45,562 nt of DNA, from positions 1 to 45,562 of the forward strand of contig JANXZX010000130.1 in assembly GCA_025355325.1 (NCBI GenBank). Direction: 5' to 3'. Of this stretch, positions 6,988-45,562 are shown in pieces. The notes beneath the pieces were generated by a model. That model searched no databases. It had not been told where the DNA came from and saw only the letters and a list, made by a program, of their open reading frames with translations. The number at the start of each line of letters is the position of its first letter. Position 1 is the stretch's first letter. Source of the DNA: Geobacteraceae bacterium (GTDB lineage: Bacteria; Desulfobacterota; Desulfuromonadia; Geobacterales; Pseudopelobacteraceae). A program made the translations under genes and the position numbers.

Positions 6988-7065
6988 GCTCTGTTGCATG
7001 TTCAGGATCAATGATGTCGGTTGAGGATGAAGGGGGGGGGCTATCATCCTGAAAACAGTATTTGG

Positions 7066-7100
7066 AACCACGAAGACGCGAAGAACGCAAAGTAAAACAA
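7066..7100. repeat. End fragment of the CCACGAAGACGCGAAG repeat element
   Basis: These 35 bases match, with one mismatch, the right end of the large element at 36997-37031 read on the opposite strand, including CCACGAAGACGCGAAG and the following CAAAGTAAAACAA. It lies in the gap between two convergent genes. It looks like a solo end or a truncated copy. Confidence 0.75.
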
Positions 7101-7217
7101 AAAAAGATATATTAAAACTCATTCATGCCAAACAAAAATATACCCTGCAAGACATAATGTAAAAATATATTCATAGCGACATAACTAAAGTTTATATTCT
7201 ATCGAATATAGAGTCTT

Positions 7218-27199: not shown

Positions 27200-27763
27200 A
27201 TGAAGCCGCTATTCAATTTTCAAAAAAAATCCGGTCCGATTGTCGGGAAAGTACTCGTTGTACTGTCGATACTCTGTTTTTGCACAGGCTGCGACAAAAA
27301 ACATCAACTTAAGATCGGCGATAGTTCACCGGCGATTTCGGGCAAGGACATTCGTGGAGAACTGTTCAGCCTTGATCAGTTAAAGGGAAAAGTTGTTATT
27401 ATCTTTTTCTGGACCAATTCGTGTTGCGGGGCAAAACTGAAGCAGCTTGAGCCTTTTTACCGGCAGTATAAGGATAAAGGAATGGAGATTCTGGCTGTTG
27501 ATGTGGGCGATAGCAAAGAAATTGTCGAGTCGTTTGCACAGGCAAACGGCATAACCTTCACCTTAAAGACGGATGAAAATGGTGAAACATCAAAGCGGTA
27601 CGGCATTTTCGGTTTTCCGACTATTTTCATCATTGATCGGAATGGTATCATCAGGGAAAAGATTCATGGAGATGCTCAAACCGGGGTGCTGGAAAAACTT
27701 GTCGTAAAACAGTTCCGGATCCAAAAAGAAGTTGAAGCCAATTATCAAAAAATTCATCCTTGA
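27200..27763 (+). CDS. Thioredoxin-fold (TlpA/ResA-like) lipoprotein with altered active site
   Basis: This is a 187-residue protein. The N-terminus has a hydrophobic signal and a lipobox-like CTGC (Cys31), so it is probably a membrane-attached periplasmic protein. The rest is an AhpC/TSA-TlpA fold: IGDSSPAISGKDIRGELFSLDQLKGKVVIIFFW, then the active-site loop, a long EILAVDVGDSKE stretch and the cis-Pro loop GFPTIFIIDRNG. The active site reads SCCGAK, where TlpA/ResA have WCxxC; the second Cys of the pair is Ala, while an adjacent Cys75-Cys76 pair is present. Normal dithiol chemistry is therefore doubtful, and a peroxidase-like or scaffold role is possible. Confidence 0.85.
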   Translation: MKPLFNFQKKSGPIVGKVLVVLSILCFCTGCDKKHQLKIGDSSPAISGKDIRGELFSLDQLKGKVVIIFFWTNSCCGAKLKQLEPFYRQYKDKGMEILAVDVGDSKEIVESFAQANGITFTLKTDENGETSKRYGIFGFPTIFIIDRNGIIREKIHGDAQTGVLEKLVVKQFRIQKEVEANYQKIHP

Positions 27764-27850
27764 AAAAACAGTTCATAACCACGAAGACGCGAAGTTCACT
27801 AAGAATTCGTAAAGTTATAAAACATTCTGCGATCACCTTTTGGGTGAGAG
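27764..27850. repeat. Uninterrupted partial copy of the CCACGAAGACGCGAAG element
   Basis: This copy matches the left arm (36711-36768) and the later internal part (36945-36976) of the large element, but without the inner insertion. Shared segments include CAGTTCAT, CCACGAAGACGCGAAG, CACTAAGAATTCG and a small hairpin TCACC/GGTGA with a T-rich loop. The right inverted terminus is absent. It lies just after the TlpA-like gene. Confidence 0.8.
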
Positions 27851-27865
27851 TGCATATTAATTGAA

Positions 27866-27899
27866 CAAAAAAATGGGGAAGGCCAAAAGCCTTCCCCAT
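27866..27899 (-). terminator. Rho-independent terminator of the acetate permease operon
   Basis: A perfect 11-bp stem, ATGGGGAAGGC (27873-27883) and its complement (27889-27899), encloses a five-base loop. Read on the minus strand it is followed by a run of seven T (27872-27866), 31 bp after the actP stop. Confidence 0.9.
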
Positions 27900-27929
27900 A
27901 TTGCATTATATCAGCTCTCTGACAAGCAA

Positions 27930-29921
27930 TCAGTGATCGATAGCTTTAGCCATGCCGAGGCCGGTGTTCTGACGGACGTACACTTCGTCAAACATCTCTT
28001 CGGAACGCTTGTTCGGGAACATCAGGCATCCGAGGATGGAGGCGATGAAGCCGAGCGGGATCGAGATGATGCCGGGGTTCTTCAGCTTCAGGATCGGCTC
28101 GCTGAGACCCATAATGGATTTGCCGTCCATGCCCAAAACCTCAACCTTTGCTTTTGCAAGTGCTTTGGTGTCTTTTTCATTCAGTGCTGTACCAGGAGGC
28201 AGGGCAGCCTGTTTTTTCTCCATGGCGACGATTACTTTCTCGGCGCCTTTGGCAACCAGTTTCGGATAGGTCATGTTCGGGGAAACCATAACCAGGCCGA
28301 TGGAGGCGATTGTGCCAACAGTCAAACCGGAGATAACACCGGCGGTGTTGAACTTACGCCAGAACAGCGACAGAACAACGACAGGCAGGTTGCCGGAGGA
28401 GGCAACGGCGAACGCCAGAGCAACCAGGTGGGCAACGTTGGCTTTTTCAGCCATGAGGCCGATCATGATGCCTACAGCGCCGACAACCAGCGAGGTGATA
28501 CGGGCAGCCATAACCTGCTCATGTTGGTCGGCATGGCCGTCTTTGATGACGTTAACATAAATATCGTGGGCGATAGCAGCGGAAGCAGCCAGAACCAGAC
28601 CGGAAACAACGGCGAGGATGGTGGCAAAGGCTACCGAGCAAAGGAACGCGAGGAAGATGTCACCCAGAACAGGAGCAATCTCGGCGCCCAGCGTCTGAGC
28701 GAGGATCAGGGTAGCCATGTTGCCGCCCGGGTCAACCGTGATAATGCCTTGCGGGGTAATGTTTACGGCAGCGCCGAAACCGAGCAGAGTAGTAAGGACG
28801 TAGAAGCCGCCGATGATGAACATGGCGATGATAACAGATTTACGGGCAGCCTGTGCAGTCGGTACGGTGAAGAAACGCATCAGGATGTGCGGCATACCAG
28901 CAGTACCAAGAACGAGGGCCATACCGAGGGAAATCTGGTCGAGCGGTGATTTCATGAACAGACCGGGCTCAAGGAAACGCTGACCGGCATCGACACCGTT
29001 CAGTATTACACCATCTTTCAGAACCAGTTTGGAAACGTGATCCTGAATATCAGGGCTGTTGACGATGGATTCAAAGAAGGCAAAGATGTTGAAATTGCAC
29101 TTAAGCAAAACCAGGAACGACAGCAGGAAGGCGCCCGACATCAGCAGGCCGGCCTTGATGATCTGAACCCAGGTGGTGGCGGTCATGCCGCCGAAAACAA
29201 CGTAGCCGACCATCAGGATACCAACGCCGACGATGGCTGTTTTGTACGGTACGCCAACCAACAGCGCCATCAGCTTGCCTGCGCCAACCATCTGGGCAGT
29301 CAGGTAGAAAGTGGAGACGGCTACGGTGGAGATAGCGGCAAAAGCGCGCACCGGTTTCGGATTGGTACGGAAGGAGAGGATGTCTCCCAGGGTGTACTTA
29401 CCGGCGTTACGGCACGGCTCGGCAACGATCAGGAGCACGGTGATGTAAGCAACCAGCCAGCCGACGGAGTACATGAACCCGTCATAACCGTACAGTGAAA
29501 TCAGGCCGGAAATACCGAGGAACGAGGCGGCAGACATATAGTCGCCGGCAATCGCCCAACCGTTCTGAGTGCCGGTGATACCACCACCTGCGGCATAGAA
29601 GTCGGCAGCTGTTTTGGTCTGTTTGGCGGCCCAGACAACAACAGCCAGTGTGATGCCGATGATGATGGCAAACATGGAGAGGGTGATGGCCTTATTGGCC
29701 TTCAAGGTAACTTTTTTCTTTTCAACCGGTGCCGGAGCGGCAGCAGGGGCTGTGGTTGCTGCACCTGGTGCGGCGATGGCAGGAGTGCCGGGGGTGGCCG
29801 GTGCGGAGGCAGCCGGAGCTGAACCTGGAGCTGCCGGAGCGTTCTTCGGCTCTTCAGCAAAGGCGGCTGCGGCGACGGTGAGGGCTAAGCAGGCTGCGAT
29901 TATAATGTTTTTATAAGTCAT
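27930..29921 (-). CDS. actP: Cation:acetate symporter (SLC5/SSS family)
   Basis: This is a 663-residue transporter predicted to take up acetate, the main electron donor of Geobacter-type bacteria, with sodium or protons. A signal-like N-terminus (about 1-22) is followed by a Pro/Ala-rich linker (about 25-68) and then about 13 TM helices with the SSS motifs DFYAAGGGITGTQNGWAIAGDYMSAASFLG and FGGMTATTWVQIIKAG. The last large loop (about 560-610) is Lys/Ala-rich and hydrophilic. AAGGAGG precedes the ATG. It follows the DUF485 gene by 16 bp and ends at a strong terminator. Very regular, GC-rich codon use suggests high expression. Confidence 0.93.
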   Translation of the reverse strand: MTYKNIIIAACLALTVAAAAFAEEPKNAPAAPGSAPAASAPATPGTPAIAAPGAATTAPAAAPAPVEKKKVTLKANKAITLSMFAIIIGITLAVVVWAAKQTKTAADFYAAGGGITGTQNGWAIAGDYMSAASFLGISGLISLYGYDGFMYSVGWLVAYITVLLIVAEPCRNAGKYTLGDILSFRTNPKPVRAFAAISTVAVSTFYLTAQMVGAGKLMALLVGVPYKTAIVGVGILMVGYVVFGGMTATTWVQIIKAGLLMSGAFLLSFLVLLKCNFNIFAFFESIVNSPDIQDHVSKLVLKDGVILNGVDAGQRFLEPGLFMKSPLDQISLGMALVLGTAGMPHILMRFFTVPTAQAARKSVIIAMFIIGGFYVLTTLLGFGAAVNITPQGIITVDPGGNMATLILAQTLGAEIAPVLGDIFLAFLCSVAFATILAVVSGLVLAASAAIAHDIYVNVIKDGHADQHEQVMAARITSLVVGAVGIMIGLMAEKANVAHLVALAFAVASSGNLPVVVLSLFWRKFNTAGVISGLTVGTIASIGLVMVSPNMTYPKLVAKGAEKVIVAMEKKQAALPPGTALNEKDTKALAKAKVEVLGMDGKSIMGLSEPILKLKNPGIISIPLGFIASILGCLMFPNKRSEEMFDEVYVRQNTGLGMAKAIDH

Positions 29922-35158: not shown

Positions 35159-36662
35159 CTACAAATTAACACGTTTCTCACGTGGCGCACCCTTCTTCTT
35201 GCGCACTATCACCGGCACAGCCGCCTCATCAAAGCCTATGCTGAAATTACCGTCTTTGGCCATGTCCAACCGTACCGTTGTCGGCATATCTCCCGCTCCC
35301 ATCATGGTCAGGATTCTTTCCGAAAGCTGGGGCAGGATCGTGCCGCGCATGATGTGGTCGATATTCCTGGCGCCGGTTTCAACTTCGGTACATCGTTCGG
35401 CAATGCAGTCCAGCACGGCTTTTGAATAGGAAAGCCGCATTTTGTGGCTCTCCAGCAGGCGCGCCGCAAGTTTTTCCAGCCTGAGTGTGACGATCTGTTT
35501 CATAAAGGACGGATCGAGCAGGTAGAAGGGAACGATTGTCATACGGGCCAAAAGTGCCGGTTTGAAATGGCGGGAGAGCATCGGTCTGATAGCTTCCGTC
35601 AGTTCCTCTGGCGTGGGCCGCTCCGTACCTGAACAAAGTTTGCTGATGCCGTCGGAGGCCAGATTGCTGGTCAGGAACAGCACCGTATTTTTAAAGTCGA
35701 TGTCACGCCCTTCGCTGTCGGAGAGGCTTCCTTTGTCGAAGACCTGATAGAACAGGTTGACCACATCCAGATGTGCCTTCTCCACTTCATCCATCAGAAC
35801 CACCGAATACGGCTGGCGGCGCACCGCTTCGGTCAACAGTCCCCCTTCGCCGAAGCCGACGTAACCGGGGGGCGATCCGATCAGGCGACTGACGGTGTGT
35901 GCCTCCTGAAATTCACTCATATTGATAGTGGTCAGAAAACGGTCGCCGCCGAACATCAGATCGGCCACGGCCAGGGCGGTCTCCGTCTTGCCGACGCCGG
36001 AAGGGCCTACCAGCAGGAAAATCCCCTGGGGGCGACTCGGGTCGTTCAATCCGGCTTTGGCAGCGCGGACAGTTTCGCCGATGATTTTGATTGACTCGTC
36101 CTGCCCCTTGATCCGCTGGCGCAGGTCGTTTTCCAACTGCATAACGGAGCCTGCCTGATCGCGCAGAACCTTGCCCAGCGGGATTCCGGTCCAGTCCGAT
36201 ACCACCTTGGCAATCACGTCCGGATCTACCTCAATCCGCACCAGCGGCGCATCGCCCTGCACAGCGTTCAAATCAGAGGTAAGAGTTGCAATTTCTCCCT
36301 TGATTTCTTTCCGGCGCTCTTCCGTCCCCTCTTGTGCGGCCTGCACACCCAGCTCCGTGCGGAGTGCCACCAATTGCTGAGCCAGTCCCTGCTCTGACCC
36401 CGGCGCCCGCCTGGAGCAATCCCATGTCGAGACCGAAAATGGCAACGTCACGCAGAATATCTGGCACAGCCGGGTCGATTTCAAACTGGCGCAGGATCAG
36501 CGGCAGATCGCCCTGCGGTTCTTCAATGAGTTTGGCCAGAACATGTTCCACCGTTACTTCATAGTGGGTACGGGAAACGCAGAGCCCGGCCGCTCCTTCC
36601 AGTGCGCGGGTACAGTGGGGAGTCAGACGGTTCAGCAGGTTTTTGATGTCAACGGTGAGCAT
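35159..36662 (-). pseudogene. tssH: tssH (clpV) remnant with two internal deletions
   Basis: This is what is left of the type VI secretion ATPase ClpV, which recycles contracted sheaths. Residues 1-64 match the Clp N-domain start (VDIKNLLNRLTPHCTRALEGAAGLCVSR, split across helices). The sequence then jumps to VPDILRDVAIFGLDMGLLQAGAG, which belongs after Walker A of the first AAA+ domain, so the rest of the N-domain and that Walker A are lost. About 24 residues later (near 36400) the frame shifts and a second jump lands in the middle domain (EQGLAQQLVALRTEL). From there the second AAA+ domain is intact (GPSGVGKTET; VVLMDEVEKAH) to the end. About 500 of a usual 870-900 codons remain, so it cannot be functional. 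Confidence 0.88.
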
Positions 36663-36710
36663 GTGTGTTAGTTCCTTTGTCGTTTATTTTTAAATATGTT
36701 TTATTCCGCA

Positions 36711-37031
36711 AAAACCAGTTCATTACCACGAAGACGCGAAGTCCACTAAGAATTCGCAAAGTTATAAACCTGAAATCGGCTGTTCATGAACCACAGAGCA
36801 ACTGAGCAACAGAGGAATCAAACTGTTACATCAACAACAGGCATAACCAAAATGGTGAGTTATTATTTCTGGTTTTAACCTTAATTCTTCATTGTTTTTG
36901 CTCAGTTGCTAAGTTGCTCAGTGTTTCAAATGCTTTTTTTTAGGATAAACATTCAGCAATCACCTTTTTGGTGAGAAGGAATTTGAATATATTCTATTGT
37001 TTTACTTTGTGTTCTTCGCGTCTTCGTGGTT
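36711..37031. mobile_element. MITE-like repeat with 16-bp perfect terminal inverted repeats, carrying a nested insertion
   Basis: CCACGAAGACGCGAAG at 36726-36741 is perfectly inverted at 37014-37029, giving about 304 bp between outer ends; similarity to the copy at 27764 starts a little further out, at about 36711. No open reading frame lies inside. The left arm and the later internal part (36945-36976, with a TCACC/GGTGA hairpin) recur uninterrupted at 27764-27850, and the right arm recurs at 7066-7100. The element lies exactly between the truncated tssK and the tssH remnant, where the rest of the type VI cluster would be. It is consistent with a non-autonomous transposable element or a recombination-prone repeat. 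Confidence 0.8.
36769..36944. mobile_element. 176-bp nested repeat with imperfect inverted ends and ATAAA flanks
   Basis: Compared with the uninterrupted copy at 27764-27850, these bases are extra. They are flanked by ATAAA on both sides (36764-36768 and 36945-36949), a likely 5-bp target duplication. The ends are imperfect inverted repeats: CCTGAAA against TTTTAGG, and GAACCACAGAGCAACTGAGC (36789 onward) against GCTCAGTTGCTAAGTTGCTC (36900 onward). It carries no gene. This is a second short repeat family inserted in the first. Confidence 0.72.
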
Positions 37032-37054
37032 CAAAATGCCGTTTTTGATACTGG

Positions 37055-37354
37055 TTACTCCGCAAATCGTTTACTCACCCATGCTTCATCAAAGGCCCGG
37101 TCGTCTGTACAGCCGTTTTCTGCCAAGGAGACAAAAGTTCCGTCAGGAAAAAGAAAATCTCCACCCTGAACGCTGAAAGTACGTGTGCCAAGCGCATCTT
37201 TCCGAAGTGATATTGTCGCTACTCCCCAAAAATGAGGCATGAGATATTTTTGATAAGGGGAGAGAAGCCCCTGGCACGTGCGGTCTAACAGTTGGAAATG
37301 CTGTGGTTGCAGTAAAATTCCCTGGTCCCAGAAAAGTGGTTTTTGTACGTTCAT
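37055..37354 (-). pseudogene. tssK: tssK N-terminal fragment
   Basis: ATG 37354 has AGGA eight bases upstream. The product of about 99 residues matches the start of the type VI baseplate protein TssK: KPLFWDQGILLQPQHFQLLDR corresponds to the family's conserved W-x-G-x-x-L-x-PQHF motif. Full TssK has about 450 residues; here the similarity stops near DEAWV, shortly before a stop codon 24 bp from the edge of the repeat element. The remaining 350 codons are missing from the window, so the gene is truncated by the deletion that removed the core of the cluster. It lies 46 bp after tssJ on the same strand, the usual tssJ-tssK order. Confidence 0.87.
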
Positions 37355-37400
37355 TATTTGTCCTTTGCCCTGGTATGTGTGTATCACTGCCTTTAAACGC

Positions 37401-37952
37401 TTATTTTGCTGCTTCTTTTGTTGTGGCCACTGGTTGCTTTATTTCGTTGGGATCTAAGTGCAGATTAATGACTAATTTTTCTGCCTTCTGTACAAGAACG
37501 GAGCCTTTTTTTACCTCCGATACCGGAATTGCGTAGGTTCTAACGGCGCCTTCCTTCTGCAGGGAGTAATAACCGGCGACGATACCTACATATTTTGCAC
37601 CGTCAGTACGATCCAATGACTCGGTTATTTTTTGTCCGGGTTGGACTACCAGTTTTTTGGAATACGTAACGCTTGACTCAAAACGGTTGCATTCCAATAA
37701 TTTGGGTAGCCCGTCTTTCTCGTCGCTCAACTGGTTGAAACCATTGAGGTCTTTTAGGTTGTAGAGACAGACAAGTAATGAATGTGCCTTTTTTTGGTAG
37801 AGATTTATTTGCGGGTCACTGGTGATTTGGAGCTGTATGGCGTTTTTTTCGTAGCCCCAATCCGGTGGTTGTTTTGCAAGCGGGGTCGAAGAACAGGCAA
37901 AAAGTAGTGAGGCTAGACTGAACCATGAGAGCAGTCTTGTAATGCGAAACAT
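37401..37952 (-). CDS. tssJ: Type VI secretion lipoprotein TssJ
   Basis: This is a 183-residue outer-membrane lipoprotein of the type VI membrane complex. The signal and lipobox LFAC (Cys20) are followed by the TssJ transthyretin-like fold: AIQLQITSDPQINLYQKKAHSLLVCLYNLKDLNGFNQL, a middle strand with VTYSKKLVVQPGQK, and YVGIVAGYYSLQKEGAVRTYAIPV. GGGAGGT precedes the ATG. The gene looks complete, but its partners TssL and TssM are not in the window and tssK and tssH are broken, so it probably has no function in secretion now. Confidence 0.87.
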   Translation of the reverse strand: MFRITRLLSWFSLASLLFACSSTPLAKQPPDWGYEKNAIQLQITSDPQINLYQKKAHSLLVCLYNLKDLNGFNQLSDEKDGLPKLLECNRFESSVTYSKKLVVQPGQKITESLDRTDGAKYVGIVAGYYSLQKEGAVRTYAIPVSEVKKGSVLVQKAEKLVINLHLDPNEIKQPVATTKEAAK

Positions 37953-45415: not shown

Positions 45416-45562
45416 ATGGTGCATGAAGAGCTAACAGAGAAAATCCTCAAAGCTTGTTTCGAGGTTAGCAACGAGCTTGGCAGCGGTTTTCTTGAATCTG
45501 TTTATGAGAAAGCCTTATTGATTGCGTTGAGAGACGCAGGGATAAAGGCTGAGTCGCAAAAG
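45416..45562 (+). CDS. GxxExxY family protein, 3' end outside window
   Basis: The first 49 residues are visible. They contain HEELTEKILKACFEVSNELG and GFLESVYEKAL, where GFLESVY is the exact GxxExxY motif that names the family; the Glu belongs to a PD-(D/E)XK-like nuclease fold. AAAGG lies upstream of the ATG. Function is unknown; members are frequently scattered in multiple copies and preceded by short repeats, as here. Confidence 0.88.
   Translation, partial: MVHEELTEKILKACFEVSNELGSGFLESVYEKALLIALRDAGIKAESQK

What the first reader, a model, noticed from the sequence alone, without database searches (positions are those of the whole stretch)
36711..37031. Nested MITE-like elements: one short inverted-repeat element inserted in another
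The outer element has 16-bp perfect inverted ends (36726-36741 and 37014-37029). Compared with an uninterrupted partial copy at 27764-27850, it has gained 176 bp (36769-36944) whose ends are themselves imperfect inverted repeats and which is flanked by ATAAA on both sides. The empty site, filled site and likely target duplication are all visible in one window. Neither element encodes a protein, so both would depend on an enzyme in trans.
Basis: seen in the sequence. Interest (0 to 1): 0.75.

Follow-up and report, generated by a model that had tools for sequence, protein, structure and literature searches.

The report
One miniature transposon inside another
Two families of short, protein-less jumping DNA in a Geobacter-like bacterium have tips like those of a rare bacterial transposon, and one has landed inside the other; unexpectedly, their hairpin arms match arms that flank small nuclease genes in the same genome.

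Summary
The inner element is 36769-36944 (176 bp, CCTGAAA...TTTTAGG) between ATAAA copies at 36764-36768 and 36945-36949. At least 35 places in the draft genome hold inner-element sequence; 19 of 32 two-ended copies have an exact 5-bp target duplication (shuffled pairs: mean 2.4, maximum 8). Seven of 11 outer loci have an empty site. The 16-bp repeats are not the outer ends: its tips lie about 20 bp further out (36706-37047), and 6 of 9 two-ended copies show a 5-bp duplication by eye. Inner tips equal, or differ by one base from, those of an IS1380-like insertion sequence of the same genus (CCTAAAAACGGCAGTT, targets WTNAW); outer tips resemble them. The likely mover is thus a DDE transposase in trans, of which none was found in this genome. 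The inner element entered the same ATAAA in both orientations, so at least twice. Its arms, not its tips or core, match inverted arms around GxxExxY nuclease genes, a link I found in no paper searched. Nested MITEs are ordinary; the shared arm module is the interesting part.

The parts
36706..37047 (+). outer element (with the inner insert), tip to tip; about 161 bp without the insert and one ATAAA
   Evidence: comparison with copies on C218, C161, C190 (two), C102, C132, C6, C11
36706..36724 (+). outer left tip (CCGCAAAAACCAGTTCATT; usual form CCTTGAAAAATCAGTTCATA)
36764..36768 (+). target duplication ATAAA, left copy
36769..36944 (+). inner element, 176 bp, CCTGAAA...TTTTAGG
   Evidence: at least 35 places in the genome, 32 of them two-ended
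36787..36817 (+). inner left arm, units of about 8 nt (CCACAGAG CAACTGAG CAACAGAG)
36898..36928 (+). inner right arm, 84% complementary to the left
36945..36949 (+). target duplication ATAAA, right copy
37031..37047 (+). outer right tip (TCAAAATGCCGTTTTTG)
27758..27850 (+). left part of an outer copy with an empty insertion site; right part missing
7048..7110 (-). right part of another outer copy (end nearest the core approximate)

Best explanation
Both elements are MITEs: short non-coding transposons moved in trans by an IS1380-like DDE transposase. The transposase would recognise tips of the form CCTAAAAACGGCAGTT, cut them out, and join them to a 5-bp staggered cut in a WTNAW target, so that repair leaves a 5-bp duplication. 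The outer family was inserted first and carries a TTATAAA in its middle, a fitting target; an inner-family copy then landed there and duplicated ATAAA. Shown: the copies, boundaries, duplications, empty sites, common tips and nested order. Inferred: that the IS1380-like enzyme is the mover, and that it came from an element since lost from, or missing in, this draft genome.
For: At least 35 places with the inner element in the 4.17-Mb draft (the tool scored 40 of 73 candidates). Exact 5-bp duplication in 19 of 32 two-ended copies and at least 4 of 5 bases in 24 of 32, against means of 2.42 and 10.2 and maxima of 8 and 19 in 5000 shuffles of the pairs. On the left flank, position 2 is T in 31 of 32 and position 4 is A in 29 of 32. 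Outer family: duplication read by eye in 6 of 9 two-ended copies. Of 11 outer loci, 7 are empty, 3 hold the inner element, 1 another insert. The IS1380-like element of G020 has CCTAAAAACGGC tips and TTTAA on both sides; one of G032 has CCTAAAAACGGCAGTTG at both ends. Of 18 inner-family copies looked at in other genomes, 5 (in G008, G035, G002, G010) begin with the identical 16 nt CCTAAAAACGGCAGTT, and so does one copy here (C235). The flanks of IS copies and IS fragments read fit the same target (TTTAA, TTAAT, ATAAT, ATTAT, ATAAA, ATCAT, TTGAT). Pfam DDE_Tnp_1_4 is matched over its cut-off, 81.9 against 34.7 bits.
Against: No such transposase was found in this genome (nothing over the cut-off; none), and only 5 of 141 genomes of the order hold a match at E 1e-60 or better, although 25 of 77 relatives have a match to the composite at E 1e-5 (the weakest of these may be arms only). 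I did not survey this genome for other transposase families. The transposase scores 154.2 bits for NCBIfam IS1380, below the curated 180. Most inner tips here differ from the IS tip at base 8 (CCTAAAAT), and the outer tips are similar rather than equal. Only the G020 copy shows both flanks of an IS. The G029 copy has one clear tip only. The window's outer copy has no clean duplication, and the inner copy on C218 a poor one (ATAAT/ATTAA).
Confidence: 0.76

Rival explanations
1. Both are MITEs with 5-bp duplications, but they are moved by some other, unidentified transposase with similar tips.
For: No IS1380-like transposase found in this genome; one-base tip difference in most copies here; other transposase families were not surveyed in this genome.
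Against: 16 of 16 tip bases shared between an IS and some MITEs of the genus, same target preference and duplication length. The one weak DDE hit here (C62) looks IS4-like, and its similarity to other copies ends without such tips.
Confidence: 0.16
2. The arms, not the tips, drive mobility: the GxxExxY PD-(D/E)XK nuclease, whose genes sit between like arms, cuts or spreads all arm-bearing elements.
For: Arms of both MITE families match arms of GxxExxY cassettes, while cores and tips do not; arms flank GxxExxY genes in 59 of 89 loci examined.
Against: The target duplications lie at the tips, about 20 bp outside the arms. In the 19 GxxExxY flanks printed I saw no such tips, and many of these genes sit at one conserved locus rather than moving.
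Confidence: 0.04
3. The composite moves or is copied as one unit, so the nested copies reflect one insertion event.
For: C218 holds a composite in the same orientation, with ATTAA on both sides of the outer element.
Against: On C149 the inner element lies in the opposite orientation, tips included, at the same ATAAA, so at least two events are needed. The window and C218 composites are only 88% identical.
Confidence: 0.15
4. Assembly error joined two repeats.
For: Draft of 241 contigs; copies on C149, C115, C81, C133 and C63 lie at contig ends.
Against: The window copy is internal to a 45.6-kb contig, the junction has an exact ATAAA duplication, and the join falls at the very tips.
Confidence: 0.02

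Closest known systems
IS1380-family insertion sequences (e.g. ISEcp1)
   Same: 5-bp duplication, as reported for ISEcp1 (TATGA; passages of PMC2887853); the related transposase matches Pfam PF13701 over its cut-off. Tips beginning with CC are recalled as usual for the family.
   Different: These elements carry no gene; the related transposase is below the NCBIfam IS1380 cut-off; no published IS1380 tip sequence was compared.
Chunjie MITE of Geobacter uraniireducens
   Same: Short, non-coding, multi-copy intergenic MITE of a related bacterium; 178-235 bp, one full-length copy plus 37 with conserved ends (passages of review PMC10969869).
   Different: Sequence not compared: the original paper is not held. 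Whether it is the same family is open.
23S rRNA intervening sequences with an S23p gene
   Same: A small gene in a short selfish element; the Coxiella one has 428 nt and lies in helix 45 (start of the abstract of PMC4990558 in the listing). That its ends are complementary is recalled.
   Different: The MITEs carry no gene, and their relation to rRNA was not examined; the parallel concerns the arms only.

Membership tests
MITE (bacterial) | short, no protein encoded | tested here: met
   164-182 bp for 32 inner copies; no ORF of 80 aa or more overlaps 36706-37047
MITE (bacterial) | terminal inverted repeats | tested here: met
   CCTAAAA...TTTTAGG, imperfect beyond
MITE (bacterial) | target site duplication | tested here: met
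   inner 19 of 32 exact; outer 6 of 9 by eye, no chance level computed
MITE (bacterial) | many copies at unrelated sites | tested here: met
   at least 35 places in own genome; 25 of 77 relatives have a match to the composite
MITE (bacterial) | ends match a full-length relative with a transposase | tested here: met
   inner family: in the genus, not in this genome (absent here). Outer family: tips similar only
IS1380 family (of the putative mover) | transposase over curated family cut-offs | tested here: inconclusive
   Pfam DDE_Tnp_1_4 81.9 vs 34.7 met; NCBIfam NF033539 154.2 vs 180 not met, though best hit
IS1380 family (of the putative mover) | 4-5 bp A+T-rich duplication (range recalled) | tested here: met
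   TTTAA on both sides of the G020 element, the one copy with both flanks
IS1380 family (of the putative mover) | transposition shown | not testable with these tools
   needs an assay
REP/RAYT elements | no target duplication (recalled) | tested here: not met
   duplications present
Chunjie MITE | sequence identity to Chunjie | not tested
   paper not held
known RNA family | Rfam match | tested here: not met
   no match up to E 1 in 36500-37200

The most novel reading that the evidence does not exclude
The inverted arms built of roughly 8-nt units (CCACAGAG-CAACTGAG..., CACGAAGA-CGCGAAGA...) are a portable, function-bearing module. It encloses GxxExxY nuclease genes (and, in 7-nt-unit form, TIGR02436 genes) across this order, its two arms change together between species at one conserved locus, and it has been combined with IS1380-type tips to make these MITEs. 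The GxxExxY nuclease or an RNA-processing enzyme would act on the arm hairpin, and the MITEs would exploit the same recognition.
Probability: 0.2. Interest if true: 0.75.

Novelty: new member of a known kind. Interest (0 to 1): 0.48.

Why it matters
The case gives two layers of insertion in a known order, with empty sites, a likely mover and a target base hit at least twice, all in one genome. More widely, the arms shared between MITEs and GxxExxY gene cassettes offer a handle on a very common gene family (39 of 48 genomes searched, own included) that hardly appears in the open papers searched, and make a concrete test possible: does the nuclease recognise its own flanking arms?

Tried and rejected
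The first alignment of inner copies left minus-strand copies unturned and was replaced. The first target-duplication script used a wrong right boundary and gave 4 exact of 31 (one copy was read twice there); corrected. Of the other PF13701 matches in relatives, L122 and L129 have other tips (CCCAGAT..., CCTGACTCC...) in the crude search, and for L121 and L123-L126 it showed nothing convincing. The own-genome PF13701 hit (C62, 19.4 bits) I take for an IS4-like transposase from its sequence (by recall). A possible IS relic on C231 is only a 15-nt match (a tblastn line in that script named a file that I had not made and printed nothing). The 12-nt near-repeat TTAYTCCGCAAA on both sides of the outer element was considered as a target duplication and set aside: its inner half is the outer left tip. 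Derivation of the MITE cores from the GxxExxY gene: no similarity outside the arms. A genome-wide arm vocabulary was rejected: arms at different GxxExxY loci of one genome differ (G049), and in G010, G022 and G055 the arms at the conserved locus do not match those of the MITEs, although they do or nearly do in G000, G002 and G023. The paper search for nested MITEs in bacteria listed mostly papers on eukaryotes and their viruses (listing only); two papers hold 'IS1380 family' together with MITE terms and were not opened. Odds: on checking, I lowered the best explanation from 0.80 to 0.76 because other transposase families were not surveyed in this genome, and raised the first rival from 0.13 to 0.16.

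Full report
The observation. The inner segment is 36769-36944, 176 bp, between ATAAA at 36764-36768 and ATAAA at 36945-36949. The 16-bp inverted repeats are perfect and well above chance. The copy near 27.76 kb has an uninterrupted site, GTTATAAAACATTC, against GTTATAAA-insert-ATAAACATTC.

Copies in the genome. The window is contig C221 of a draft of 4,172,326 bases in 241 contigs. A search with the composite gave 35 places with inner-element sequence; the tool scored 40 of 73 candidates, so this is a lower bound. Two pairs of contig ends share a flank (C81/C133 and C149/C115), so these 35 places may be 33 loci. I took boundaries by one mechanical rule and compared the 5 bases on each side. 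Of the 35 copies, 3 have one end only. Of the other 32, 19 have identical 5-mers and 24 have at least 4 of 5 equal; 5000 shuffles of the pairs gave means of 2.42 and 10.2 and maxima of 8 and 19. The target reads WTNAW. An earlier version of the rule was wrong and is told under Tried and rejected.

The outer element. The copies show that the 16-bp repeats are arms inside the element. The tips lie about 20 bp further out: usually CCTTGAAAAATCAGTTCATAACC on the left, and GGTTCCAAATGCCGTTTTTG or, on C218...TTTTAGG on the right. In 6 of 9 two-ended copies I read a 5-bp duplication by eye, with the end free by one base: ATTAA (C218, C161, C190a), ATTAT (C190b), TTAAA (C6, C11). The window copy, C102 and C132 show none. 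No chance level was computed for this count.

Nesting. Of 11 outer loci whose middle can be read, 7 are empty (C161, C190a, C190b, C102, C132, C6, and 27.7 kb in the window), 3 hold the inner element (the window; C218; C149 with C115, counted as one), and C11 holds an unrelated insert at nearly the same place. On C149 the inner element is reversed, tips included, between ATAAA copies at the same base as in the window, so there were at least two insertions into the same spot. The outer copy on C190 has five WTNAW sites, and the window as a whole has 24 per kb. The reason for the preference is unknown; the site is in a palindromic TTATAA between the arms.

The mover. The Pfam family that holds IS1380 transposases (PF13701) has no match over its cut-off in this genome, but 12 of 77 relatives have one. 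Among these, a 502-aa type occurs in G020, G029 and G032. The G020 copy has CCTAAAAACGGC at both tips and TTTAA on both sides; a G032 copy has CCTAAAAACGGCAGTTG at both tips, one of them at a contig edge; the G029 copy has one clear tip, CCTAAAAACGGCAGCTG. A relative in G126 has CCTAAATCCGGCAGTTGG and CCTATAAAAAGCAGTTGAG, and one in G030 a tip CCTAAAAAAATCAGTTGAG, which resembles the outer element's left tip. Of 18 inner-family copies from other genomes, 5 begin with the identical 16 bases CCTAAAAACGGCAGTT; here one copy does (C235), and most have CCTAAAATCGGCAGTT, one base different. The transposase is closest to IS1380 in NCBIfam (154.2 bits), but below that model's cut-off of 180, so I call it IS1380-like. 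Matches at E 1e-60 or better are in 5 of 141 genomes of the order, and not in this one. Other transposase families were not surveyed in this genome. The enzyme is therefore inferred, not shown, for this strain. A 5-bp duplication by an IS1380-family element is in print for ISEcp1 (passages of PMC2887853).

Host range. A scan of named genomes with a 23-base inner pattern gave 20 stretches, from four metagenome-assembled genomes named as Geobacteraceae, Geobacter, Desulfuromonadales and Deltaproteobacteria; records of the window's own genome may be left out there. Of 77 relatives, 25 have a match to the composite at E 1e-5 (the tool scored at most 9 candidates in each, and the weakest matches may be arms only).

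The arms. This part went beyond the finding. On C104 and on named contig L184, arms like those of the outer and of the inner element, respectively, enclose a GxxExxY gene, a PD-(D/E)XK nuclease by Pfam. The family is in 39 of 48 genomes searched, own included. I examined 89 of its loci (29 of the 30 fetched by the search, one being cut by a contig edge, and 60 taken by me; fragments and broken copies in the list were mostly left out). In 59 the best inverted repeat flanking the gene beats the best of 25 single-base shuffles of one flank; in 30 it does not. The arms consist of units of about 8-9 nt and differ between loci, but match within a locus. Sixteen loci lie between genes that I take for methylmalonyl-CoA mutase and epimerase (names by recall of the sequences); two of these come from named contigs that may duplicate other rows. 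There the left arm scores 24.9 on average with its own right arm and 13.5 with those of other loci; its own is the best or tied in 10 of 16, and L209 (8) is a clear exception. Genes of family TIGR02436 (four-helix-bundle proteins by recall) have such arms too, several of them of 7-nt units, in 17 of 20 loci examined; of 30 fetched, 6 were skipped at contig edges and 4 short or weak ones left out. Similarity between MITEs and cassettes is confined to the arms.

Against a simple story of arm exchange: G010, G022 and G055 have MITE arms unlike those at the conserved GxxExxY locus. I found no paper that describes these arms in the open library, by exact strings and by the name GxxExxY (four papers, none on the subject by title; one passage of one of them read). 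That library lacks most subscription journals.

Structure. Folded as RNA, 36706-37047 gives -103 kcal/mol (100 shuffles: mean -68.3, z -7.8), with the outer and the inner arms each paired. No Rfam family matches. A hairpin transcript is expected from the arms alone and shows no function.

Setting. The element lies between remnants of a type VI secretion locus: a ClpV-like gene in pieces, a TssK homologue of which only profile positions 1-63 of 429 match, and TssJ (ClpV by its place and domains). Deletion by recombination between two outer copies would explain both the truncated genes and the lack of a duplication at this copy. That is inference only.

Verdict. The finding is real and correctly read, and refined here in its ends, tips, target and probable mover. 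As a nested pair of MITEs it is a new member of a known kind. The shared arm module is what would repay further work.

Noticed in passing
window 45428-45562: The window ends inside the start of a GxxExxY (PD-(D/E)XK) gene, one of several copies of this family in the genome.
   Followed up: partly
L209-L298 (GxxExxY loci) and L300-L325 (TIGR02436 loci): Small genes of two families sit between inverted arms made of tandem 7-9-nt units in many loci; arms vary between loci but match within a locus.
   Followed up: partly
L091 1-230 and the tail of L090 (C115 start, C149 end): Two contig ends share a 73-base stretch next to the inner element, but its core is inverted between the arms: assembly artefact or inversion across the arms.
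   Followed up: no
window 27758-27763: The stop codon of the thioredoxin-like gene 27200-27763 lies within the left tip of the outer element (CCTTGA).
   Followed up: no
window 27758-27930 and C132:2649-2787: Outer copies lie beside the 3' ends of two similar sodium:solute symporter genes, in the same order and orientation, but with different left flanks.
   Followed up: no
window 35159-37952: Type VI secretion remnants: ClpV-like gene in pieces, truncated TssK, TssJ; the nested element sits at the break.
   Followed up: partly
C11:28302-28527 (L032, L033): An outer copy carries a different insert near the same ATAAA site, with an internal GACCTCAAAGGTTTTCAAAACCTTTGAGGTC hairpin.
   Followed up: no
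C104:25974-26414 (L092): GxxExxY gene with a frameshift between arms of the outer-element type.
   Followed up: no
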